NCBI GenBank assembly: GCA_902555435.1
Contig: CACDRL010000003.1
Coordinates: 1 to 64,000 of the forward strand
Source: an uncultured Pelagibacteraceae bacterium
Lineage (GTDB): Bacteria > Pseudomonadota > Alphaproteobacteria > Pelagibacterales > Pelagibacteraceae
Length of the DNA stretch: 64,000 bases
Direction: 5' to 3'
The position numbers were made by a program, and so were the translations under genes. This document shows, in pieces, positions 243 through 9,665 of this stretch; the stretch's first letter is position 1; each line of letters opens with the position of its first letter. The notes beneath the pieces were generated by a model, which had not been told where the DNA came from, did not search any database, and saw only the letters and a program-made list of their open reading frames with translations.

Positions 243-311
243 ATGAACAAAGAAAACGCAAGTAAACTCTGGAAAATTATTCAGGAAGCTGGCGATTATT
301 TGGGGTGCTAG
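243..311 (+). pseudogene. Broken N-terminal copy of the small gene at 3834-4067
   Basis: Bases 244-303 are identical to 3841-3900, the first 20 codons of the intact small gene. Here the frame opens with ATG AAC AAA and stops at TAG 309-311 after 22 codons. If about 8 bases around the stop (gggtgcta) are skipped, the frame again reads Leu-Val-Gly-Gln as in the intact gene and then diverges. It is therefore best read as a decayed or partial duplicate. It marks the left side of the R-M island. Confidence 0.75.
244..303 (+). repeat. 60-bp direct repeat, left copy (repeat A)
   Basis: This 60-base stretch matches 3841-3900 at every position. The two copies lie in the same orientation on either side of the R-M genes. 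The unit from one copy to the next is about 3.6 kb. Confidence 0.95.
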
Positions 312-501
312 TGGGACAACCTACTTCACACTACCTCACACTACTTCACACTAGTTATGCAGATAATTAAAAATTGATTGAAAATAATTCGCATAAAGAC
401 TCATCAATTTATTCAAAAAACTATGCCACAGACTATGCCAAATTGAGATAAATCAAAAAGCTATTAAGTAAGAAATTTATCTATAATTTTAAATTTAAAA
501 A
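312..501. other. Gene-free stretch with short tandem repeats and repeat B
   Basis: No gene is supported here. Three 10-bp units ctac(t/c)tcaca lie in tandem at 321-350. The 23-bp repeat B lies at 418-440. A short open frame reads ...YATDYAKLR and stops at 448-450. It could be the tail of a lost gene, but it is too short to identify. The end of the specificity gene follows at 502. Confidence 0.7.
418..440 (+). repeat. 23-bp direct repeat, left copy (repeat B)
   Basis: The core ctatgccacagactatgcca preceded by aaa occurs identically at 3788-3810. The next ten or so bases are similar but not identical. The two copies closely bracket the R-M pair and the unknown 111-aa gene, as attachment sites or duplicated insertion targets would. 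Confidence 0.9.
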
Positions 502-1449
502 TTAAATAATATAGCTGTTATATTTTTTTAAGAGTTTTTGTAGATCTATGTTAGGAAACTCTGGAACTAAAATGCTCGATAATCTCTCTCCTTTTGGCTT
601 TCTGCCATAAGAAAATTTATATCTATATTTAGTTATTGAAAATGCATAAAATAATTTTTCTACAATAGTCATTGATCTTTTAGGAATCAAAACAATAACA
701 TTACTATTAGGAACAAATTCAAAAATTGATACATATGCATATGAATGGCTTCCTTGACCATCTGTTGAAACATATAATGTATTTTTAGGAAAGATATATT
801 TGTTTTGAATATGATTTTTATCAACATATGCATCTATTGAATATCTTTGATCTTTTGTAGGTCTAATATATGGTAAAAAATTATCATTAATTTTACTGTC
901 ATATCTTTTTACTTCTGATGACGCAATTCCATTACATGGATCAAATAAATCTCCAAGAAAGACATTTTTAACAGGAGTGTTCAAAGCTTTAAATGTAAAG
1001 TCATCTTTTTTAAAGAATTCATATTTTTTATTTTCACTGAAGTTAATTTCTTTTGGTAAGTCTTTTAATTTGGGAATTTTTATATATGGCAAAGTTTTAT
1101 TTACCTGTCTACCATAGCTAAATTTATATCTATTAGATGAAATCACTGATGCATAAAATATCATTTGTTGAGTATTAAGCTTTATTTTAGGTTTTAAATA
1201 ATAAAGATCTCTACCGCTGTAATATTCTTCATCTTGATAAAAACACTCCATTACTGAGCCTCCACAAGAAACAGAGATTGTATGTGCTGGATTAATCTTC
1301 TCGTTTGGAATTTTCTTTACTCTTGTAATAACACCATTATTTCTTGAAGTTCTTGCTACAAAAGGAATCCCACTTTTACTCTCCTCAAGTTTATAAAATT
1401 CTAAGTTTGATCCATACACACAATGAAATAAATCCTCTATATTAGTCAT
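502..1449 (-). CDS. BcgI-like restriction-modification specificity (S) subunit
   Basis: This 315-aa protein would provide DNA sequence recognition for the methyltransferase-nuclease encoded just upstream. It has two target-recognition halves. Each ends with the same block RYKFSYGR (residues about 107-114 and 276-283) followed by an IPKL or VPEF strand, which is the internal-repeat layout of type I and type IIB S subunits. The length matches the B subunit of BcgI-type systems (around 340 aa) rather than a full type I HsdS (around 400-450 aa). Its start overlaps the end of the partner gene by 8 bp, so translation is probably coupled. The target sequence cannot be read from the protein. The assignment is strong for the class and moderate for BcgI-type in particular. 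Confidence 0.85.
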   Translation of the reverse strand: MTNIEDLFHCVYGSNLEFYKLEESKSGIPFVARTSRNNGVITRVKKIPNEKINPAHTISVSCGGSVMECFYQDEEYYSGRDLYYLKPKIKLNTQQMIFYASVISSNRYKFSYGRQVNKTLPYIKIPKLKDLPKEINFSENKKYEFFKKDDFTFKALNTPVKNVFLGDLFDPCNGIASSEVKRYDSKINDNFLPYIRPTKDQRYSIDAYVDKNHIQNKYIFPKNTLYVSTDGQGSHSYAYVSIFEFVPNSNVIVLIPKRSMTIVEKLFYAFSITKYRYKFSYGRKPKGERLSSILVPEFPNIDLQKLLKKYNSYII

Positions 1450-3280
1450 TAATTAGTTTGTATCCCATATAAGATTTTAAAGTTTTTTCAAATTCTGAAA
1501 TATCGAAATCTGTATAATCAGTCTCTAAATAATTCTCTATACACCATTCTTCATTTGGTTTAACGACTCTTCTCAATCCAAAACCATTAATACCAATGTT
1601 CTTTATATCTTTCATTTTGACTATACCGTCGGTATTTTTTGTATTCCTGTACGAGTCTAACCAATTTTTTCTTACTTTAGCCCAGGATCCAATATCTATT
1701 CGTCCTAAATTTTTTCTTTTTTCAAACAAATCTTCTCTCCAATATCCAAGATAAGTTTTGAAATTATCAGGATGAGGCTCATGTGCTTTTATAACAAGCA
1801 AACAAGTTACCACGTTAGTTTTGGAATTATGGAATAAATCTTGCGGAACACTCATCACACCCAATACAGTATGTTTTTTTTGTATAATTTCCTTTAACGC
1901 TAGATTATTTCCTGAAAATTCATTAACACAACTGACAGGAATAATAGAAACACAGGTAGCTCCTTTCTGTAAAACTTCTAGGTTATTCAATATAAATTCA
2001 AGTTCCTCTGTATCATCTTTATCAGCTTTATAAGGAGGGTTTAAAAACCCAATATTTGGTTTTAATTTTTTGACTTTATTTATCAAATTTTCGTCAAAAC
2101 AATTTTCATTGTACATTCTACTTTTTCCATCTCCATGCAGAATCATATTACTTGCAGATAATGTAAAAATATCATCCATATATTCTACACCAATAAAATT
2201 ATTGTTCTTTATCTTTAAAATCTCTCTATCTGATTTCACATCTTTTAAAATTTTTTTCATCGATGAAATTAAAAATCCTGCAGTACCACAGCAATTGTCA
2301 AATATTATGCTGTCTTTATTTATTTCGGCTATTTCACAAAATAATTCTGTTATATGTGGTGGTGTCAAAACTATACCTAAGCTTTTATCACTATTGGCAT
2401 ATTTTAAGAATTCTATATAAAATTCTCCCAATAAATCATGATATTCAATACTTTTATTAAATTTATTAATACTTTTATCTATCTCGCTTATCATTGTTAT
2501 TAAAAAATCTTTACTTGTAGTTAAAGTTTTGTGTGTTTTTATAAAAGCATAATTATTTTTAATTACATCCTTATAATTTTCGAAAACATCTGATTGTGAA
2601 AACTCTTCATAAATTGCCGCTAATAACGCATTAGTTAGACTTTTGGGGTTTTTATGTTTTTTATAAGATATTGAAAAAGGTCTGTTTTTTAATGCCACAA
2701 GAATTCCACTGAATAGTAGTGCCCTTTTTGTTTCTTGAATTTTATTTTTATGAAGAAAAGTGTTTAAATGAATCGAAAATTTAAGAATATTTTCATGTTG
2801 AGTTTTTTTTTTCTCATTAGATTTTAAATAAAGTTCAATTAAATCTTCAATTTGAACTAAATCTTTTAATTCAAAATCTGTGTATTCCTCTCCTTTTAAT
2901 TGTAAAAAAAAAGATTTTCTTAATAGATTTTTTTTATTTCCACTAATTGCAATAGACAAAACATCATATTCTTTTGATAAATATTGTGAGTATAGAAGTG
3001 CTCCATCAACTGCGTAATCTTTGAATTTATCTCTATTTTTGCTCTCGTGTTTTTTAATGTCATCTTTGCACTCTACAACAATCAAAAAATCATCAAGTTC
3101 TTTATGTTGAATTATAAACTCTGGACGACCACTTCCTGGTCCAGATTTAGAGGCATTTTGAAGTAATTTTTTAATTCTAGGATTATTGCTTATTTGCTCT
3201 TCAACAATAACCTTATTGCTATAAAATTTATTTTTTCTAAGAAGGTCCCTAAAAATTGCTACTGTTTCTACTTCTACCAT
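1442..3280 (-). CDS. BcgI-like fused restriction nuclease and N6-adenine methyltransferase (RM subunit)
   Basis: This 612-aa protein combines cleavage and modification. The N-terminal domain carries a PD-(D/E)XK nuclease signature: GRPEF at 51-55 and VVECK at 68-72. A helical linker follows. The gamma-class N6-adenine methyltransferase domain starts near residue 300 (LGIVLTPPHITELF) and has SAM motif I DNCCGTAGFL (328-337) and catalytic motif IV NPPY (414-417). Nuclease plus methyltransferase in one chain with a separate two-half S subunit is the arrangement of type IIB enzymes such as BcgI, which cut on both sides of their site. No separate HsdR is present, which argues against type I. The start at 3280 faces the divergent unknown gene across 158 bp. 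All key motifs look intact, so the system may be active. Confidence 0.87.
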   Translation of the reverse strand: MVEVETVAIFRDLLRKNKFYSNKVIVEEQISNNPRIKKLLQNASKSGPGSGRPEFIIQHKELDDFLIVVECKDDIKKHESKNRDKFKDYAVDGALLYSQYLSKEYDVLSIAISGNKKNLLRKSFFLQLKGEEYTDFELKDLVQIEDLIELYLKSNEKKKTQHENILKFSIHLNTFLHKNKIQETKRALLFSGILVALKNRPFSISYKKHKNPKSLTNALLAAIYEEFSQSDVFENYKDVIKNNYAFIKTHKTLTTSKDFLITMISEIDKSINKFNKSIEYHDLLGEFYIEFLKYANSDKSLGIVLTPPHITELFCEIAEINKDSIIFDNCCGTAGFLISSMKKILKDVKSDREILKIKNNNFIGVEYMDDIFTLSASNMILHGDGKSRMYNENCFDENLINKVKKLKPNIGFLNPPYKADKDDTEELEFILNNLEVLQKGATCVSIIPVSCVNEFSGNNLALKEIIQKKHTVLGVMSVPQDLFHNSKTNVVTCLLVIKAHEPHPDNFKTYLGYWREDLFEKRKNLGRIDIGSWAKVRKNWLDSYRNTKNTDGIVKMKDIKNIGINGFGLRRVVKPNEEWCIENYLETDYTDFDISEFEKTLKSYMGYKLIND

Positions 3281-3404
3281 AAAATTTATTAGCTTAATTG
3301 AACTAACTATAAGTTAATAACAAAAAAAATAAATGATGATTTTAAATGATTTTGTTTTTTCAACATATAAATGACACAATTATTGATTATATCTTATATT
3401 GTTA

Positions 3405-3423
3405 AAGTTTATTTCTTAAACTT
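3405..3423. promoter_or_regulatory. Inverted repeat upstream of the 111-aa gene, candidate operator
   Basis: AAGTTTA and TAAACTT form perfect 7-bp arms around a 5-base spacer. The repeat ends 15 bp before the ATG at 3439. It lies in the 158-bp divergent gap between the R-M operon and the 111-aa gene, where control of the system would be expected. Chance palindromes of this size are common in AT-rich DNA. Confidence 0.35.
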
Positions 3424-3438
3424 AAATAACTCCAAAAT

Positions 3439-3774
3439 ATGCAACTAGAACTCTTTGATTATAGACGTGATTGTCTTTTTGACTCAGATAATCAATTTAT
3501 TCACTATTACGATATATTGAAAGAAACAGAAGATACAATTAGTTACTCAGAACATATAGATCCTAAAAAAGGTTACGCTATTTGTGGTATGGAATATGAA
3601 GAATATGTAGATATTAAAAAAAAAAGATTAGGGGGATTAACTTATGATCAAATTCTTGATTATTTAAAAAAAACTAAAAAAGACCAAAGACTTAAAAAAT
3701 ATAAAGAATTACTAAAGTTCAGAAATATTCCTTTTGAGGCAGATCTTTTTACTTGGCATAACGATGACTTATAG
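3439..3774 (+). CDS. Unknown 111-aa protein next to the R-M genes
   Basis: The family is not recognised. The protein starts MQLELFDYRRDCLFDS and is charged, with an acidic, tyrosine-rich first half and a lysine-rich second half (KKTKKDQRLKKYKELLKF). It has no signal peptide or membrane segment. A segment GGLTYDQILDYLKKTKK could form a helix pair, but I do not see a convincing helix-turn-helix. It is transcribed away from the R-M operon and lies inside the two copies of repeat B, so it probably travels with the system. A controller, immunity or anti-phage accessory role is possible. The frame is clean and ends before the right copy of the repeat. Confidence 0.6.
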   Translation: MQLELFDYRRDCLFDSDNQFIHYYDILKETEDTISYSEHIDPKKGYAICGMEYEEYVDIKKKRLGGLTYDQILDYLKKTKKDQRLKKYKELLKFRNIPFEADLFTWHNDDL

Positions 3775-3787
3775 AATTTTATAGGAT

Positions 3788-3810
3788 AAACTATGCCACA
3801 GACTATGCCA
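3788..3810 (+). repeat. 23-bp direct repeat, right copy (repeat B)
   Basis: This copy is identical to 418-440. It sits 13 bp after the 111-aa gene and 30 bp before repeat A. Confidence 0.9.
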
Positions 3811-3833
3811 TATGAGGATAAAACAATAAATGA

Positions 3834-4067
3834 GTGAGAGTGAACAAAGAAAACGCAAGTAAACTCTGGAAAATTATTCAGGAAGCTGGCGATTATTTGG
3901 TGGGTCAATTACCTGACCACCCAAATCACCCTAAGGGAAGAAACCCGTATGCTCATGTTGCTATCTGTGTGAAAAGCAAATTTAACGCAAGTTATAAAGA
4001 CATTCCTGACGAGCAGTACTATGAAGTTATAAAGTATATTGAGTTTTTAAAGGAAAATCCTAGTTAG
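3834..4067 (+). CDS. Small protein of unknown function, intact copy
   Basis: The frame encodes about 77 aa, beginning (V)NKENASKLWKIIQEAGDYLVG. The second half reads PYAHVAICVKSKFNASYKDIPDEQYYEVIKYIEFL. That part resembles, from memory, the short C-terminal module of some phage antirepressor-like proteins (a basic patch followed by YKDIP and a helix), but this is uncertain. No ATG is in frame. GTG codons at 3834 and 3840 are the possible starts, and the broken left copy has ATG at the position equal to 3840. The end overlaps the convergent threonine aldolase gene by 8 bp. Its first 60 bp form repeat A, so it may be the site where the R-M island entered. Confidence 0.55.
   Translation: MRVNKENASKLWKIIQEAGDYLVGQLPDHPNHPKGRNPYAHVAICVKSKFNASYKDIPDEQYYEVIKYIEFLKENPS
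3841..3900 (+). repeat. 60-bp direct repeat, right copy (repeat A)
   Basis: This copy is identical to 244-303. It starts at the second base of the candidate GTG start codon of the small gene. Confidence 0.95.
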
Positions 4068-5109
4068 CTTTAATTGTATCTAACAATTCATCAACATCAC
4101 TAGCTTTAGTATTCCAAGCAGCAACTAATCTTACTGCTTTTCCATCTAATTCTTCTTCGTTCATCTTGTAACCTTCCGAATTTAAATGTTCTATTTTTTC
4201 TCTTGGAAACTTTGCAAATACTTCATTTGCTTCTGTTGGATAAGCAATTTCAATATCATTATACTTGCTTAAACCATCACTTAATTTTTTACCCATTGAA
4301 TTTGCATGCCTAGCGTTTCTCAACCATACATCATTTGAAATGTAGGCGTCTAATTGAGCAGAGACAAAACGCATTTTAGATAACAAGTGCCCTGCTCTTT
4401 TCATTAAAAAAGCAATATCCCCTACTAATTCTTTCTTAAAAAATATAATCGCTTCAGCTGCTAAACATCCATTTTTAGTTGCTCCAAACGACAATACATC
4501 AACCCCTGATTTCCATGTCATTTCAGCAGGACTGACATCTAAAGATACCAATGCATTAGCAAATCTAGCACCATCCATATGTAAATTTAAATTATGTTTA
4601 TGAGTAACTTCTGCAATTTTTTTGATTTCATCTAATTTATAAACTTCGCCTGTTTCACACACTTGAGTAATACTAACTGATGAAGGTTGAGTATGATGAA
4701 CAATACCTTTTCCACCTATCGATTGGTTAAGTTCTTCAGCAGTTATTTTTCCCATTATTCCTGTTAAAGGAACTAATTTACCACCTCCTGTATAAAATTC
4801 AGGAGCACCACATTCATCAGTGTTTATATGAGACATCTTATGACAATAAATATTTCCATATGAAGGTGTCATGGTTGATAAAGCTAAAGCATTAGCTGCG
4901 GTTCCTGATGCAGTTGGAAAAACAATTACTTCTTTTTCAAATATCTCTGAAAACTTATCTTGTAACTCTGTTGATAAAGGATCGTTACCATAAGGAGTAC
5001 TGTCTCCTCCATTTGCTTTTATGATTGCCTCTAATACTTCAGGACAAGCACCCGCAACATTATCTGAGGCGAATTTAACTCGCTCTCTTTTTGTTTTAAT
5101 TTTTGCCAT
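4060..5109 (-). CDS. ltaE: Low-specificity L-threonine aldolase
   Basis: This PLP enzyme splits L-threonine or allo-threonine into glycine and acetaldehyde. The 349-aa protein has the fold type I pattern of the family: FASDNVAGACPEV at the N-terminus, HMDGARFANA near the middle, and the PLP lysine in SFGATKNG. The length is normal. It is cytosolic. The gene follows the amidinotransferase by 2 bp and is last in the run creatinase-amidinotransferase-aldolase. Glycine is a substrate of classical glycine amidinotransferase, so supplying glycine to its neighbour, or making glycine for cells with limited glycine synthesis, are both reasonable roles. Confidence 0.9.
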   Translation of the reverse strand: MAKIKTKRERVKFASDNVAGACPEVLEAIIKANGGDSTPYGNDPLSTELQDKFSEIFEKEVIVFPTASGTAANALALSTMTPSYGNIYCHKMSHINTDECGAPEFYTGGGKLVPLTGIMGKITAEELNQSIGGKGIVHHTQPSSVSITQVCETGEVYKLDEIKKIAEVTHKHNLNLHMDGARFANALVSLDVSPAEMTWKSGVDVLSFGATKNGCLAAEAIIFFKKELVGDIAFLMKRAGHLLSKMRFVSAQLDAYISNDVWLRNARHANSMGKKLSDGLSKYNDIEIAYPTEANEVFAKFPREKIEHLNSEGYKMNEEELDGKAVRLVAAWNTKASDVDELLDTIKAN

Positions 5110-5111
5110 TG

Positions 5112-6227
5112 TTATTGCTTTGGAAAATAATCTTTTAGCTCACCTTCACGGTATACATCTGCTGTACAACAATGAAGTCCTCCACCAAATGCATAAGCAT
5201 CTCTAAGTTCTACTGGTACAACTTCCATTCCTAATTTATCTAATTGCTCAGCTTGATAAATTTCACTTTTCTCAACACAAACTGTTTTAGGATCTAAAAC
5301 TAAAACATTCATTGATAACCATGTTGAAGAATAGCAGAGTGGCGGTGGTTCATTATGTGCTGGTTGAGCACTATCAACAATTTCCCATCCATTATCTTCA
5401 AAAAGTTTTCTTTGCTCTTTTGGCAATCTTCTTTGAGGATTGTTAATAATTAAACCTTCTTTTATTGGTGTAAAGGTTGCATCAATGTGAATAGGATATG
5501 GATCTCCTGGGAAATTTACTGCATGTACCCTGTGATCTTTATAATGTCTCTTTAGCCAATCAATTCCTTTTAAATTAGTTGTAAATCCATGTTGAACAAC
5601 TAAGTCTTTTCCAAATCTCAATACATCTGCCGCATCAAATAAAGGTTCCTCTTCTGTGGTTACAAAATATTTTTTCTCAGTCCACTCTAATCTTTTTTGA
5701 ACACCAATTTTATCCGATAGATAATCTTTTCTATAATCTGCATCAGTTAATCTTGGCTTTGGAGCAGATTCGTGTCTCATTTTAGGATCTTGATTGTAAT
5801 AATCTTTAAGAAGTGGTCGGTAACATAAATATTCAAACCAACGGCAACGGTAACTCATAGTTGCCTCTAGAATTTCATTACCCACGGTTAACAAAACATC
5901 TCTTGGAGGCATACAACCAAACATGGTTTCTGCTTCCCAATCTGGTGTAGAAGTTTTTTGATTAAAATCAATTGGTGTTGGCCGATCAACTTTAATGCCT
6001 CTTTTTTGAAGCATGTTTGAAAAATTATCTAATAATTCATTTGCTTTATCGACAGTGTCTTTAGTTCTTGGACCAAACTGACCTCGCATATCACTATCTT
6101 CAGGAACTTTTGCATCTAATGCTGGCTCTGGTGCTGGTATACAAGTACCATCTGCTCTTCCAACGATAACATGTTTTAACGGATCCCACTCATTCCAACT
6201 ATTAACAATAGTTTTATTCTCACTCAT
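5112..6227 (-). CDS. Glycine amidinotransferase family protein
   Basis: This 371-aa protein belongs to the amidinotransferase family, which moves the amidino group of arginine to an amine such as glycine (giving guanidinoacetate and ornithine). It starts NSWNEWDPLKHVIVG, typical of the family. The histidine/aspartate site appears in PYPIHIDATFTP and the nucleophilic cysteine in GGGLHCCTADV near the C-terminus. It sits 5 bp after creatinase and 2 bp before threonine aldolase. The real acceptor is unknown; relatives use inosamine phosphates or other amines. With creatinase beside it, guanidino-compound turnover is the likely theme. Confidence 0.85.
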   Translation of the reverse strand: MSENKTIVNSWNEWDPLKHVIVGRADGTCIPAPEPALDAKVPEDSDMRGQFGPRTKDTVDKANELLDNFSNMLQKRGIKVDRPTPIDFNQKTSTPDWEAETMFGCMPPRDVLLTVGNEILEATMSYRCRWFEYLCYRPLLKDYYNQDPKMRHESAPKPRLTDADYRKDYLSDKIGVQKRLEWTEKKYFVTTEEEPLFDAADVLRFGKDLVVQHGFTTNLKGIDWLKRHYKDHRVHAVNFPGDPYPIHIDATFTPIKEGLIINNPQRRLPKEQRKLFEDNGWEIVDSAQPAHNEPPPLCYSSTWLSMNVLVLDPKTVCVEKSEIYQAEQLDKLGMEVVPVELRDAYAFGGGLHCCTADVYREGELKDYFPKQ

Positions 6228-6232
6228 AAAGA

Positions 6233-7450
6233 TTAGTTTTTTATAATATTATGCTCAGGCCCGAAAGGAAATTTTGTAATATTTTCTGCTCCATGTTTAC
6301 CAATGACCAAAATATCATGCTCTCTATATCCACCTGCACCAGGATTTCCTTCTGGTATCATTATCATTGGCTCCATAGAAACCACCATATTTTCCTCAAG
6401 AACAGTATCAATATCCTCTCTTAATTCTAAACCAGCTTCTCTTCCGTAAAAGTGTGAAAGCATACCAAACGAATGACCATAACCAAATGTTCGGTACTGA
6501 AGGTAACCAAGTTCAGCAAACAATTCATTTAACTCATGACAAATATCCGAACATTTAACACCTGGTTTAATTAATTCTAATCCTCGTTTGTGAACTTTAA
6601 CATTTGCTTCCCAAGCTTTAATTGATGCATCATCTGCATGATCTAAAAATAAAGTTCTCTCTAGTGCAGTGTAATATCCTGAGATCATTGGAAAAGTATT
6701 TAAAGATAAAATATCTCCTTTAACTAATTTTCTATTGGTCTTTGGATTGTGAGCTCCATCTGTATTAATACCAGATTGAAACCATACCCAGGTATCCATG
6801 TACTCTGCACCTGGATAGCTTTTAACAATCTCTCTTTCCATTCTATCTCTTGCTGCTATTGCCACTTCGATCTCAGTGTTATCTTCTCTAATATTTTTAG
6901 CTATTTCTTCACCACCAATATCTGCAATCCGTGCACCATTTCTAATGATCTCAATTTCCTCATTAGATTTAATCATTCTAAGTTTCATTAAATCTTTTGA
7001 AACATCAGTAAATAAAGAAAAAGTAAAAATAGACCCTATTTTTTCTCTCATATCCAATGTGACATGATCATTTTCAATTCCAATACTTTTAGGAGGCTCA
7101 TCTCTTCCAATAATTGATACAATTGCTCTTAAAAAATTGTCTCTTTTCCAATCTGTATAAATAACATTATCACAATGGGATCTACGCCATGGTTGACTTG
7201 CATCAATATTAGCTGAAATTGTTGAAATTTTATTTTGAGTGATGACACATCCGTATGGTCTACCAAAAGAACAATAAATAAAACCTGTGTAATATGCAAC
7301 GTTATGCATGGATGTTAAAATAACCATATCTAAATTATTTTTATCCATCAAAGATCTAAGTATACTTACTCGATCTTTGTATTCTTTATCTGTAAATGGT
7401 AATTTTACTTTTTCACCATTTTTAAGTTCAAAAAAATCTGGTCGTTCCAT
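6233..7450 (-). CDS. Creatinase (creatine amidinohydrolase), M24 fold
   Basis: Creatinase hydrolyses creatine to sarcosine and urea. The 405-aa length matches the Pseudomonas enzyme (about 403 aa). The protein has the two-domain pita-bread layout. The segment DTWVWFQSGINTDGAHNP and the late GYGHSFG/FYGREAGLELRED region are characteristic of creatinase rather than of Xaa-Pro peptidases. The metal ligands of true M24 peptidases are not all conserved, as expected for this metal-free hydrolase. It heads a leftward run with the amidinotransferase and threonine aldolase, and an EamA transporter lies directly upstream. Urea made here could be used by the urease at 54-59 kb. A related guanidino acid is an alternative substrate. 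Confidence 0.85.
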   Translation of the reverse strand: MERPDFFELKNGEKVKLPFTDKEYKDRVSILRSLMDKNNLDMVILTSMHNVAYYTGFIYCSFGRPYGCVITQNKISTISANIDASQPWRRSHCDNVIYTDWKRDNFLRAIVSIIGRDEPPKSIGIENDHVTLDMREKIGSIFTFSLFTDVSKDLMKLRMIKSNEEIEIIRNGARIADIGGEEIAKNIREDNTEIEVAIAARDRMEREIVKSYPGAEYMDTWVWFQSGINTDGAHNPKTNRKLVKGDILSLNTFPMISGYYTALERTLFLDHADDASIKAWEANVKVHKRGLELIKPGVKCSDICHELNELFAELGYLQYRTFGYGHSFGMLSHFYGREAGLELREDIDTVLEENMVVSMEPMIMIPEGNPGAGGYREHDILVIGKHGAENITKFPFGPEHNIIKN

Positions 7451-7456
7451 AAAAAT

Positions 7457-8362
7457 TTAATTTAGTGCTATGTGGCGCTTGTTCCATCTCATAATTAAGC
7501 TGTAGTAAAATAAAGATACAAATAGAAAAAAACCTCCAATAATCGTATTTGTTGATGGCACTTCGTTAATTCCTAAAATTGGTAACCAAACCCAAAATAT
7601 TCCACCAACTACCTCAGTTAAAGATAGCAATGTCAATTCTGCAGCAGGTATAGCTTTTGAACCAATTGAATATAAAATTAATCCTGAACAAACTAGAAAC
7701 CCGTGAAGTGAAAATAAGGAACTGTTATAACTTGTAGCAAAGAACGTTTGTCCAGTAGACAAAATCATAATTGATGCAAACACAAAACAGAAGAAACCAG
7801 CGAATGCAACTGTTGTAAATTTAGGAGTTTCTTTTCTCCATCTTAGTGAAACTGAAAACACTGAAAATCCTATTGATGAGGTTAGTCCAAATACAAATCC
7901 TATCAAAGATTTCTCACCTGTATTACCTATTGCCATTATCAATATACCGGCTGTTGCAATTATAATTGATATCCAAACATTTAGTGAAATCTGTTCTCTA
8001 AGAAATAAAAATGCCAAAAGAGCTGTAAAAAAAGGCATTGCAGCTAAACAAAGTAAAGTAACAGCGGCACTGGTATTTGTTATCGAATAAATGAAAGTGA
8101 TCATTGCAACTCCAAGTCCCGAACCACCTGCTATTCCTGATAATCCTATTTTATAGTAATTTTTATAGAAGTTTTTTCCTTCTTCAAAATATAAGTAGAG
8201 ATTAAGGAGTATAAAAATAGTTAAACCTCTTCCAAATATATACTGCCAAGGAACAAGATTGGGACTATCCATATATCTAACAACCAATGGTCCAAATGAC
8301 CATAAAATTCCAGCAAACAGCACAATTGGGACAGCAAGTTTTGGATTTCTTAACTCTAACAT
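7457..8362 (-). CDS. EamA/DMT-family transporter
   Basis: This 301-aa inner-membrane protein has about ten hydrophobic segments in two repeated halves, the drug/metabolite transporter pattern. The first half begins VPIVLFAGILWSFGPLVVRY, and AAVTLLCLAAMPFFTALLAFLFLRE is the typical EamA helix 3-4 block. It ends 6 bp before creatinase and is probably the first gene of that unit. It may move creatine, another guanidino compound or a product, but the sequence does not show the substrate or direction. Confidence 0.85.
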   Translation of the reverse strand: MLELRNPKLAVPIVLFAGILWSFGPLVVRYMDSPNLVPWQYIFGRGLTIFILLNLYLYFEEGKNFYKNYYKIGLSGIAGGSGLGVAMITFIYSITNTSAAVTLLCLAAMPFFTALLAFLFLREQISLNVWISIIIATAGILIMAIGNTGEKSLIGFVFGLTSSIGFSVFSVSLRWRKETPKFTTVAFAGFFCFVFASIMILSTGQTFFATSYNSSLFSLHGFLVCSGLILYSIGSKAIPAAELTLLSLTEVVGGIFWVWLPILGINEVPSTNTIIGGFFLFVSLFYYSLIMRWNKRHIALN

Positions 8363-8411
8363 ATGGAGAAATCTAATTCTAAAAAGATTTTTCTACAACT
8401 AAAATACGTTT

Positions 8412-9665
8412 CTAAATTAAAGTTTGATTAGAGTGGTTGGGGAAAAAACAATCTAAGATATCCCCTTTTTTAAATTTTGATTTTCCTGCTGGCAACAATG
8501 ACCAAATGTTTGATTTAACAAAAGATTTAACTCTAAAAGACTCTTGTCCTTGTAAAATTTCAACTTCTATTTTTCCATTTTTAGTTGTGCTTAGTTTACT
8601 TTTTGCAAACCGTGTAAATTTTTGTTTTTTAGAGAAACTATTTTTTAAAATCGCTCTGATAGGCTGTTCTTCACTTAATCCCAAGATATTCTCCATAAAA
8701 GGGATAACAAAAAATCTAAAGCAGGCAGATGATGATATTGGATTTCCAGGAAGTCCAAAGATTGCTTTTTGTTTTCCTCTAATTTTAGCAAATAGAATTG
8801 GTTTTCCTGGTCGGATTGCTACACTTTTAAAATAATTGGATAATTTAAATGTCTTAACAACATTAGGGATATAGTCATATTTTCCTGCAGAAACAGCACC
8901 TGAAGTTATCAATATATCAGTATCACTATTTATAAGTTTTTTAATTTGTGATTTATAAATATTTTGATGATTATCTCTAAGTATACCACCATTTTTAAAA
9001 TTGAATAAAAAGTTTTCTCTAAGATTTTTAATGTAATGGCTATTAGAGTTTCTAACTTTCCAATTTGGAATGTTATCTTGGTCTGTAATTTCATTCCCCG
9101 TTGAAAAAAATAAAATATTAATTTTTTTTTTGACCTTAATTTTTTTAATTCCTAAAGTTTTAAAAGCTAAAATATTATTTGGTTGTATAATTGTATTTTT
9201 CTTAACAACAATTTCACCTTTTTTAAAGTCTGAACCTGCAAATCTTACATAACTAAACTTTTTGATTTTTTGATTAACTAAAATGTATTTTCTATTATTT
9301 TTATTTGGATAAAAATTAATCTGTTCTATTGGAATAATTGTATCAAAACCTTTTGGAATTATACCGCCTGTCATTATTTCAACGGCATTGTATTTTTTAA
9401 TTTTTTTATTTAATGATTTAGTTCCTGCAGCAATAGATCCGATTATTTTAAATTGTTTTGGTGAATTTTTCTTAATCCCATTAGTATCTCTGGAGTTAAC
9501 TGCAAATCCATCAAATGCAGCATTATCTCCTGCTGGATAATTGATCTTTGAATAAATATTGTTTGAAATCACTCTATTAAAAGAGTTTTCACTTAATATA
9601 ATTTCATCTTTGATTTTAATTTTTGCTTTTTTTAAAATTTTCTTAGATTGATTGTAACTAATCAT
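8412..9665 (-). CDS. moeA: Molybdopterin molybdenumtransferase MoeA
   Basis: MoeA inserts molybdate into adenylylated molybdopterin to form Mo-cofactor. The 417-aa protein shows the family blocks in order: NYPAGDNAAFDGFAVNS near the N-terminus, AAGTKSLNKK and EIMTGGIIPKGFDTIIPIEQ in the middle, STGNEI, and then SGAVSAGKYDYIP and FGLPGNPISSSACF in the MoCF-binding domain. It overlaps mobA by 4 bp. The cofactor is needed by the formate dehydrogenase 4 kb away. Confidence 0.93.
   Translation of the reverse strand: MISYNQSKKILKKAKIKIKDEIILSENSFNRVISNNIYSKINYPAGDNAAFDGFAVNSRDTNGIKKNSPKQFKIIGSIAAGTKSLNKKIKKYNAVEIMTGGIIPKGFDTIIPIEQINFYPNKNNRKYILVNQKIKKFSYVRFAGSDFKKGEIVVKKNTIIQPNNILAFKTLGIKKIKVKKKINILFFSTGNEITDQDNIPNWKVRNSNSHYIKNLRENFLFNFKNGGILRDNHQNIYKSQIKKLINSDTDILITSGAVSAGKYDYIPNVVKTFKLSNYFKSVAIRPGKPILFAKIRGKQKAIFGLPGNPISSSACFRFFVIPFMENILGLSEEQPIRAILKNSFSKKQKFTRFAKSKLSTTKNGKIEVEILQGQESFRVKSFVKSNIWSLLPAGKSKFKKGDILDCFFPNHSNQTLI

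What the first reader, a model, noticed from the sequence alone, without database searches (positions are those of the whole stretch)
502..3280. BcgI-like (type IIB) restriction-modification system in a streamlined marine genome
The 612-aa subunit fuses a PD-(D/E)XK nuclease (GRPEF...VVECK) to a gamma N6-adenine methyltransferase (NPPY). The partner has two similar recognition halves. This is the layout of enzymes that cut on both sides of a bipartite site. R-M systems are expected to be sparse in SAR11-like genomes, so an apparently intact one in a repeat-bounded locus is notable for phage defence.
Basis: partly seen in the sequence, partly recalled or inferred. Interest (0 to 1): 0.6.

Follow-up and report, generated by a model that had tools for sequence, protein, structure and literature searches.

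The report
Restriction enzyme on SAR11 cargo cassette
A two-gene phage-defence enzyme in a tiny-genomed ocean bacterium sits inside a small mobile cassette that slots into one exact spot of the chromosome, which suggests how these very lean bacteria could trade defence genes.

Summary
1442-3280(-) encodes a 612-aa nuclease/N6-adenine methyltransferase fusion, 502-1449(-) a 315-aa specificity subunit with two similar halves. This is the two-chain (BcgI-like) layout with intact motifs; double-sided cutting, the hallmark of type IIB, cannot be tested from sequence.

The more interesting part lies around it. The pair, plus an unnoticed 111-aa gene (3439-3774), is the cargo of a ~3.6-kb integrative cassette bounded by a 60-nt duplicate of the 5' end of a 75-aa gene. 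In relatives this site holds other cargo or none. Cassette ends carry iterons and an element-specific repeat pair that matches left to right. Similar core and ends lie beside tyrosine-recombinase-like genes in two ~9-kb viral-collection contigs; no such gene was found in 85 cargo ORFs or the window's own genome.

A 93.5%-identical R-M pair sits inverted in an equivalent cassette at tRNA-Leu(TAA) in a Pelagibacteraceae single cell. The 111-aa family, found only in this genus in my searches, often lies near unrelated R-M genes.

R-M: new member of a known kind. Cassette: new variant of satellite-like integrative islands. Mobilisation in trans and defence are inferred.

The parts
243..302 (+). 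Truncated ('ghost') copy of the first 20 codons of the 75-aa gene, followed by stop codon TAG at 309-311: left attachment-site core
   Evidence: (perfect 60-nt repeat with 3841-3900); equivalents in relatives
303..360 (+). Conserved left end of the cassette: TGCTAG...GGGAC then about three iterons of (C)ACACTACCT type, period about 10
   Evidence: similar arrangement after most ghost copies in relatives and in L077/L105 attP-like regions
419..456 (+). Left element-specific repeat pair ACTATGCCACAG/ACTATGCCA plus GAGATAAATCAA (inferred recombinase arm site)
   Evidence: left-right match test over elements
502..1449 (-). Specificity (S/B) subunit, 315 aa, two similar target-recognition halves
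1442..3280 (-). Restriction-methylation (RM/A) subunit, 612 aa: N-terminal PD-(D/E)XK nuclease, helical linker, N6-adenine MTase (NPPY)
3439..3774 (+). 111-aa protein of an undescribed family, divergent from the RM genes; homologues often near other R-M genes in this genus
3789..3826 (+). Right element-specific repeat pair ACTATGCCACAG/ACTATGCCA plus GGATAAAACAA (inferred recombinase arm site)
3840..4067 (+). Complete 75-aa target gene (GTG start); its first 60 nt are the right attachment-site core
   Evidence: no family match better than E 0.02

Best explanation
A BcgI-type two-chain restriction-modification system is carried as cargo by a small integrative cassette of SAR11 bacteria. Enzyme: two RM chains would bind one S chain; S reads a bipartite DNA site with its two recognition halves; the MTase marks one adenine per half-site on host DNA; the N-terminal PD-(D/E)XK domains cut unmarked (phage) DNA near the site, on both sides if it behaves like BcgI (inferred). 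Cassette: a circular form carries a copy of the first ~60 nt of a 75-aa host gene as crossover core, flanked by iterons and by an element-specific repeat pair on each side. A tyrosine recombinase exchanges core for core at the chromosomal copy, so the host gene is rebuilt on the right and a 60-nt ghost is left on the left. No recombinase was found in the cassettes, so it is probably supplied in trans by ~9-kb satellite-like elements with a similar core and iterons, the repeat pair deciding which recombinase fits. Shown: motifs and layout, target-site duplication, empty and differently filled sites, left-right pairing, recombinase-like genes beside such sites. Inferred: circular form, trans supply, role of the pair, cleavage pattern, defence.
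For: R-M: full-length family matches; P53/E54/E70/K72 and NPPY invariant in 25 selected homologues; in 28 of 30 viral loci examined (of 63 found) an ORF of 170-545 aa follows the RM ORF, and a Staphylococcus phage pair is annotated bcgIA/bcgIB; AF2 model pLDDT 83 with matches to type I M subunits and to BsaXI over model range 1-547. Cassette: perfect 60-nt repeat; 32 of 201 genus genomes have two or more matches to the 75-aa gene, the extra ones mostly its first 20-37 codons; ghost-junction pattern in 44 of 399 genus genomes and in none read backwards; 24 distinct elements have left and right pairs matching at 5.54 of 6 variable bases against 2.99 shuffled, 0 of 20,000; five ghost-bearing loci have an allele without ghost sharing about 470-700 nt of left flank to within 9 nt of the gene. 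Recombinase: L077 and L105 hold pair + core + iterons directly before a 581/571-aa recombinase-like protein; L105's first pair equals that of a G165 cassette. Five positions expected of tyrosine recombinases (R396, K517, R520, H544, Y554 of L077) are invariant in four relatives (roles recalled). Independent copy at tRNA-Leu in L036, the target also used by the recombinase class in L107/L108.
Against: No integrase-bearing element with the window's own pair was found: 0 exact hits, and 9 relaxed hits that look like chance. No integrase homologue in the 94%-complete host genome. The pair rule is not perfect: L105's second pair, inside its recombinase gene, differs from its first; one of 24 elements (L047) does not match left to right, and 9 of 34 intervals lacked a detected pair at one or both ends. 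The left end of many cassettes (18 of 34 by one regular expression) reads like the degraded 5' end of the integrase gene, so some cassettes could be decayed elements. No empty allele with the window's own left flank was found. No expression, methylation or excision data. The window's left boundary lies 242 nt from a contig end.
Confidence: 0.65

Rival explanations
1. The cassette is the decayed remains of an autonomous integrative element that lost its integrase and replication genes; it is no longer mobile and the R-M pair is simply stranded there.
For: Left ends of 18 of 34 elements read in frame like a degraded integrase start; G158 (L106) shows an integrated element with integrase pieces and stops at this very site; only 4 of 201 genus genomes hold an integrase homologue.
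Against: Both ends stay matched in 23 of 24 distinct elements with different cargo (4-6 of 6 bases); no longer integrase remnant in 85 cargo ORFs or by tblastn; the R-M pair with a 111-aa-type gene sits in two cassettes of different target class.
Confidence: 0.3
2. The 60-nt repeat comes from homologous recombination or a tandem duplication of the 75-aa gene, not from site-specific recombination.
For: A short identical repeat near a contig end could arise that way.
Against: Nearly the same boundary recurs with unrelated cargo in many genomes, alleles without ghost exist, and viral-collection contigs carry the same kind of junction beside a recombinase-like gene.
Confidence: 0.04
3. The enzyme is a type IIG-like or type I-like system that cuts on one side only, or an enzyme that now only methylates.
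For: Best PADLOC model is labelled type IIG; fold matches include type I M subunits and the type IIG enzyme DrdV; most marine MTases in one survey lacked a nuclease partner (PMC9516812, passages seen).
Against: Separate two-half S chain and intact nuclease motif as in two-chain type IIB enzymes; model match to BsaXI from residue 1 to 547.
Confidence: 0.3

Closest known systems
BcgI (two-chain type IIB R-M archetype; PMC4027205, passages seen)
   Same: A chain with nuclease and MTase, separate B chain resembling a type I S subunit
   Different: Source, and here cargo of a small integrative cassette with a 111-aa companion; recognition sequence, stoichiometry and double-sided cutting unknown
BsaXI (type IIB, cryo-EM; PMC11997821, passages seen)
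   Same: Separate RM and S chains; profile match to RM.BsaXI at 4.4e-17, mainly MTase; model alignment Z 27.3, range 1-547
   Different: BsaXI RM chain is 916 residues with extra 'knob' and 'paddle' parts; the window protein has 612
Tycheposons and VEIMEs (marine satellite-like islands; named in PMC11389934 passage; tycheposons described second-hand in PMC10872708 passages; original papers not held)
   Same: Marine islands at tRNA-type targets, tyrosine recombinase, cargo genes, streamlined hosts
   Different: Target is also the 5' end of a protein gene; ~3.6-kb integrase-free cargo unit with element-specific paired end repeats; direct comparison with tycheposon ends was not possible
Islands in the 5' end of dusA (PMC4482086, search listing and start of abstract seen)
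   Same: Integration into the 5' end of a conserved protein gene
   Different: Those were recognised by an integrase gene at the site; here none of 85 cargo ORFs matched the integrase profile

Membership tests
Two-chain type IIB (BcgI-like) R-M | One chain with PD-(D/E)XK nuclease plus N6-adenine MTase motifs | tested here: met
   (P53, E54, E70, K72, NPPY invariant in 25), model with strands at the motif
Two-chain type IIB (BcgI-like) R-M | Separate S chain with two target-recognition halves, encoded next to the RM gene | tested here: met
   same layout in most relatives examined, (not annotated in L115 and L122)
Two-chain type IIB (BcgI-like) R-M | Sequence relationship to BcgI itself | not tested
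   BcgI's own sequence was not compared; only a phage pair annotated bcgIA/bcgIB (27.6% identity) was
[quoted passage not shown] m6A in each half | not testable with these tools
   needs protein or methylation data
Two-chain type IIB (BcgI-like) R-M | (RM)2S assembly | not tested
   no complex was modelled
Tyrosine-recombinase integrative element | Target duplication with one gene copy restored | tested here: met
Tyrosine-recombinase integrative element | Encodes its own recombinase | tested here: not met
   no integrase among the cassette's three ORFs, in 85 cargo ORFs or in the host genome
Phage satellite / tycheposon | Packaged in particles by a helper phage | not testable with these tools
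   L077, L105 and L078 are contigs of a viral collection, which suggests but does not show packaging

The most novel reading that the evidence does not exclude
SAR11 bacteria exchange defence and other genes as integrase-free cassettes that accumulate at fixed sites (5' end of a 75-aa gene; tRNA-Leu). They are moved in trans by small satellite-like elements whose recombinases recognise an element-specific 'address' pair at both cassette ends. R-M cargo travels with a previously undescribed 111-aa partner that is shared by otherwise unrelated R-M types and may regulate or license them.
Probability: 0.4. Interest if true: 0.78.

Novelty: new variant of a known kind. Interest (0 to 1): 0.6.

Why it matters
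[quoted passage not shown] If such lean genomes acquire R-M and other genes through addressable cassettes, that gives a concrete route for gene exchange in a streamlined clade. The match between cassette ends and recombinase-bearing elements makes the prediction directly checkable. The 111-aa family would be a new R-M-associated protein.

Tried and rejected
1) A helper element with the window's exact repeat pair: none in viral contigs. A relaxed pattern gave 9 stretches, none with the flanking GAGATAAA motif and none with an integrase match; judged chance.

2) Host gene dhaK as part of the site: the left-flank fragment (2-208) looks dhaK-like by eye only (no family search). In the 31 other genus genomes with a homologue (32 of 201), it lies on another contig than the listed 75-aa gene copies, far from them on the same contig (G193), or in a genome where no 75-aa gene was listed. 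Fragmented assemblies leave adjacency open. No empty allele matches the window's own left flank.

3) A generic right-end motif search in the own genome was uninformative: 42 matches against 51 for the control.

4) The 111-aa protein: no family match in Pfam, NCBIfam or PADLOC, and only weak ones in PHROGs and across the alignment; no solved relative (best E 0.08); a poor AF2 model (pLDDT 47, two-row alignment), so no fold search was made. Its N-terminal Q(L)ELF resembles a beta-clamp-binding motif (recalled, not tested). The co-location statistic assumes uniform placement, does not control for shared hotspots or related loci, and used 69 typed MTase hits: the stronger PF00145 matches and the 17 strongest PF02384 matches; weaker and fragment rows were left out.

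5) A close-relative scan of genome contigs found a single locus; viral contigs none with the single sequence, 63 loci with the alignment. Of these 63, 30 were examined; 7 of the 30 were left out of the 25-row alignment (L171, L172, L179 over-long; L174, L176 near-duplicates; L192, L218 with a start inside the nuclease region as I chose it), so the invariance count does not cover them.

6) The Charybdis preprint (PMC12324425, part 1 of 7 read) describes a different marine element.

7) Foldseek/VIA rows outside R-M and MTase proteins were not pursued; the list is dominated by the MTase domain, and the nuclease domain was not folded alone.

8) Novelty searches: among the listed titles and abstract starts I saw none describing these cassettes; the lists are capped and most subscription papers are not held.
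Full report
WHAT WAS CLAIMED AND WHAT IS THERE. The 612-aa protein matches N6_Mtase (1.9e-22, residues 281-569) and the PADLOC type IIG REase-MTase model PDLC03608 along its whole length (4.6e-145). The 315-aa protein matches Methylase_S and PADLOC Specificity_II (4.2e-65), and its halves align with each other (27% identity, E 4e-10). No Pfam model above its cut-off covers the N-terminal nuclease part. In an alignment of 25 homologues (window, L036 and 23 proteins chosen from 63 viral loci), P53, E54, E70, K72 and NPPY 414-417 are invariant. In nine proteins (window, L036, six plasmid and one phage relative), P53, E70, K72 and NPPY are invariant and position 54 is E or D. AlphaFold2 gives a model with mean pLDDT 83 and pTM 0.73. 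Its best matches are type I M subunits (2okc, Z 29.2) and the type IIB enzyme BsaXI (8w2p, Z 27.3, 495 residues, model range 1-547, rmsd 19 A, presumably because domains are placed differently); another BsaXI entry, 8w0p, aligns only over 161-549; DrdV (type IIG) matches over 1-579 (Z 20.1). In print, four residues of BsaXI's nuclease domain (E73, D90, E105, K107) are essential (PMC11997821, passages). The window's E54, E70 and K72 plausibly correspond to the last three (inference; not aligned residue by residue).

KNOWN KIND OF ENZYME. Relatives are spread over plasmids (483 records with a match, 22 covering at least 80% of the query, all under 60% identity), phages (61 records) and viral contigs (63 loci). 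Of six plasmid regions read, four have an annotated S gene directly after the RM gene and one a 320-aa hypothetical protein there; in L115 no S gene is annotated at that place. A Staphylococcus phage pair is annotated bcgIA/bcgIB; a Mycoplasma phage relative is a longer ORF without an annotated S gene beside it. Of 30 viral loci examined, 28 have a following ORF of 170-545 aa near the RM stop, and L171 and L172 have none. A and B roles and A2B assembly of BcgI are described in PMC4027205 (passages). So the R-M system is a new member of a known kind.

HOST AND RARITY. The window lies at the start of contig C3 of a 1.29-Mb, 24-contig assembly. In 61 genus genomes only the own genome has this enzyme; three others have 28-30% matches, at least two of them to type I-like methylases. 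In print, 19 of 172 'Ca. P. ubique' genomes had R-M systems (PMC11066056, passage) and eight Pelagibacterales genomes had none (PMC9516812, passage). Here 42 of 201 genus genomes have an over-cut-off m5C MTase match.

THE REPEAT IS AN ATTACHMENT-SITE REMNANT. 244-303 and 3841-3900 are identical and lie in the first 20-21 codons of a 75-aa gene at 3840-4067(+) that has no convincing family match. That gene is found in 122 of 201 genus genomes; 32 of the 201 have two or more matches, the extra ones mostly only its first 20-37 codons, typically on the same strand a few kb away. I fetched 40 loci, chosen mainly for extra copies and therefore not random. With the window, 27 of 41 loci had at least two copies, giving 34 intervals. 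Most ghost copies end at about the same place (...GGCGATTATTTGG) and continue into a conserved left end with iterons of the CACACTACCT type; exceptions include the first copy in L041 and the single copy in L056. A pattern across this junction occurs in 44 of 399 genus genomes and never when read backwards. In five ghost-bearing loci (L040, L043, L044, L049, L054) the left flank is 83-95% identical, over about 470-700 nt and to within 9 nt of the gene start, to loci of genomes in which only the complete gene was found (copy numbers): the same site empty.

ELEMENT-SPECIFIC ENDS. Most elements have a tandem pair of the form ACT+6-7 nt, period 11-12, followed by a GAGATAAA-like motif, near both ends. 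The window's is ACTATGCCACAG/ACTATGCCA at 419-440 and 3789-3810. Of 34 intervals, 25 had both pairs detected and 24 remained after removing one duplicate. Left and right second copies match at 5.54 of 6 variable bases on average, against 2.99 (sd 0.26) when right ends are shuffled among elements, 0 of 20,000. One element (L047) matches at only 1 of 6; the nine intervals without a detected pair at one or both ends were dropped.

THE RECOMBINASE IS ELSEWHERE. Scans of viral contigs for the core, for the junction and for relatives of the L077 protein point to L077 (9070 bp) and L105 (9003 bp). Both have pair, a similar core and iterons directly upstream of a 581/571-aa protein. Pfam Phage_integrase matches L077's at 8.6e-06, just under the curated cut-off, and the positions expected for a tyrosine recombinase are invariant in four relatives (roles recalled). 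L105's first pair is identical to that of a cassette in G165; its second pair, inside the recombinase gene, is not. A third hit, L078, has the complete 75-aa gene near the end of the stretch held. G158 has an integrated element of this type at the same 75-aa gene, with its integrase in pieces. None of 85 cargo ORFs matches a profile of the four integrases, and tblastn finds none in the loci. The own genome has none, and only 4 of 201 genus genomes do. Other cassettes at this site carry a type IIG-like enzyme (L045), a type II REase/MTase pair (L042), helicase-type defence genes (L044, L052), or ORFs I did not identify. Hence the trans-mobilisation model. The alternative is that cassettes are decayed elements, since 18 of 34 left ends read like a degraded integrase start.

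SAME CARGO, OTHER ADDRESS. In L036 the A-S pair (2,814 aligned nt, 93.5% identity, from the S stop to 33 nt before A) and a 110-aa gene (about 76% identity in DNA over 404 nt) lie between a ghost 5' half and the complete gene of tRNA-Leu(TAA). Their own iterons and a CTCGGAAC pair flank them, and the whole block is inverted relative to the cassette ends. L107 and L108 hold recombinases 31% identical to L077's right after a tRNA-Leu ghost; L108's iterons resemble those of L036, L107's less so, and no pair was detected in L107. The pair of genes has thus been placed in two cassette classes with different targets.

THE THIRD GENE. The 111-aa protein (3439-3774) has a match in 35 of 201 genus genomes. 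In a sample of 308 genomes of the class, only the own genome matched; at least two others there are of the same genus without a match. It was not found in plasmids, phages or viral contigs; genome contigs was not searched with it. In 20 loci fetched around its better matches, 12 have a DNA-methyltransferase gene nearby, of at least four different kinds (m5C, N6_Mtase, D12, N6_N4); two more have a Z1-domain gene. One of the 12, L164, is the same cassette as L036. Of 35 homologues, 14 lie within 5 kb of a listed PF00145 or PF02384 hit, against 0.13 expected for random placement; 21 of 35 do not, and 55 of 69 methylase hits have no such neighbour. Shared hotspots and related loci inflate this figure, so I treat partnership as a lead.

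VERDICT. R-M identity is strong, type IIB behaviour likely but untested. Cassette nature is strong, trans mobilisation probable, defence function inferred. In searches of the held library I saw no listed title or abstract start describing these SAR11 cassettes or the 111-aa family, but the lists are capped and the tycheposon and VEIME originals were not held, so overlap with them cannot be excluded.

Noticed in passing
window 3439-3774(+): 111-aa gene of an undescribed family found only in this genus in my searches, frequently near unrelated R-M genes.
   Followed up: partly
window 3840-4067(+): 75-aa gene without convincing family match, present in 122 of 201 genus genomes, used as insertion target through its 5' end; its own function is unknown.
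   Followed up: partly
L077:5724-7469, L105:5126-6841: About 9-kb viral-collection elements with a large tyrosine-recombinase-like protein and a primase-helicase-like protein (DUF5906 tested in L077, not L105); a second address pair lies inside the first codons of the recombinase gene.
   Followed up: partly
L106 (G158), 779-8775: Integrated element with a primase-like ORF (by eye) and recombinase pieces at the same 75-aa gene; the recombinase matches contain stops.
   Followed up: no
L041 (G129), oriented 1803-8650: A 6.8-kb cassette at the same site whose ORFs look like a metabolic or transporter set (by eye), so cargo may not be only defence.
   Followed up: no
L165, L166, L167: 111-aa gene in the same fetched stretch as tmRNA, with N6 methylase genes in L165 and L166: possibly another hotspot.
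   Followed up: no
L160:6449-7802(-): Macro-domain protein (Pfam) next to a 218-aa ORF that looks DarT-like by eye, about 2 kb from a 111-aa homologue.
   Followed up: no
L171, L172, L179: Viral-contig relatives in which the RM ORF is 768-786 aa, possibly carrying extra C-terminal sequence.
   Followed up: no
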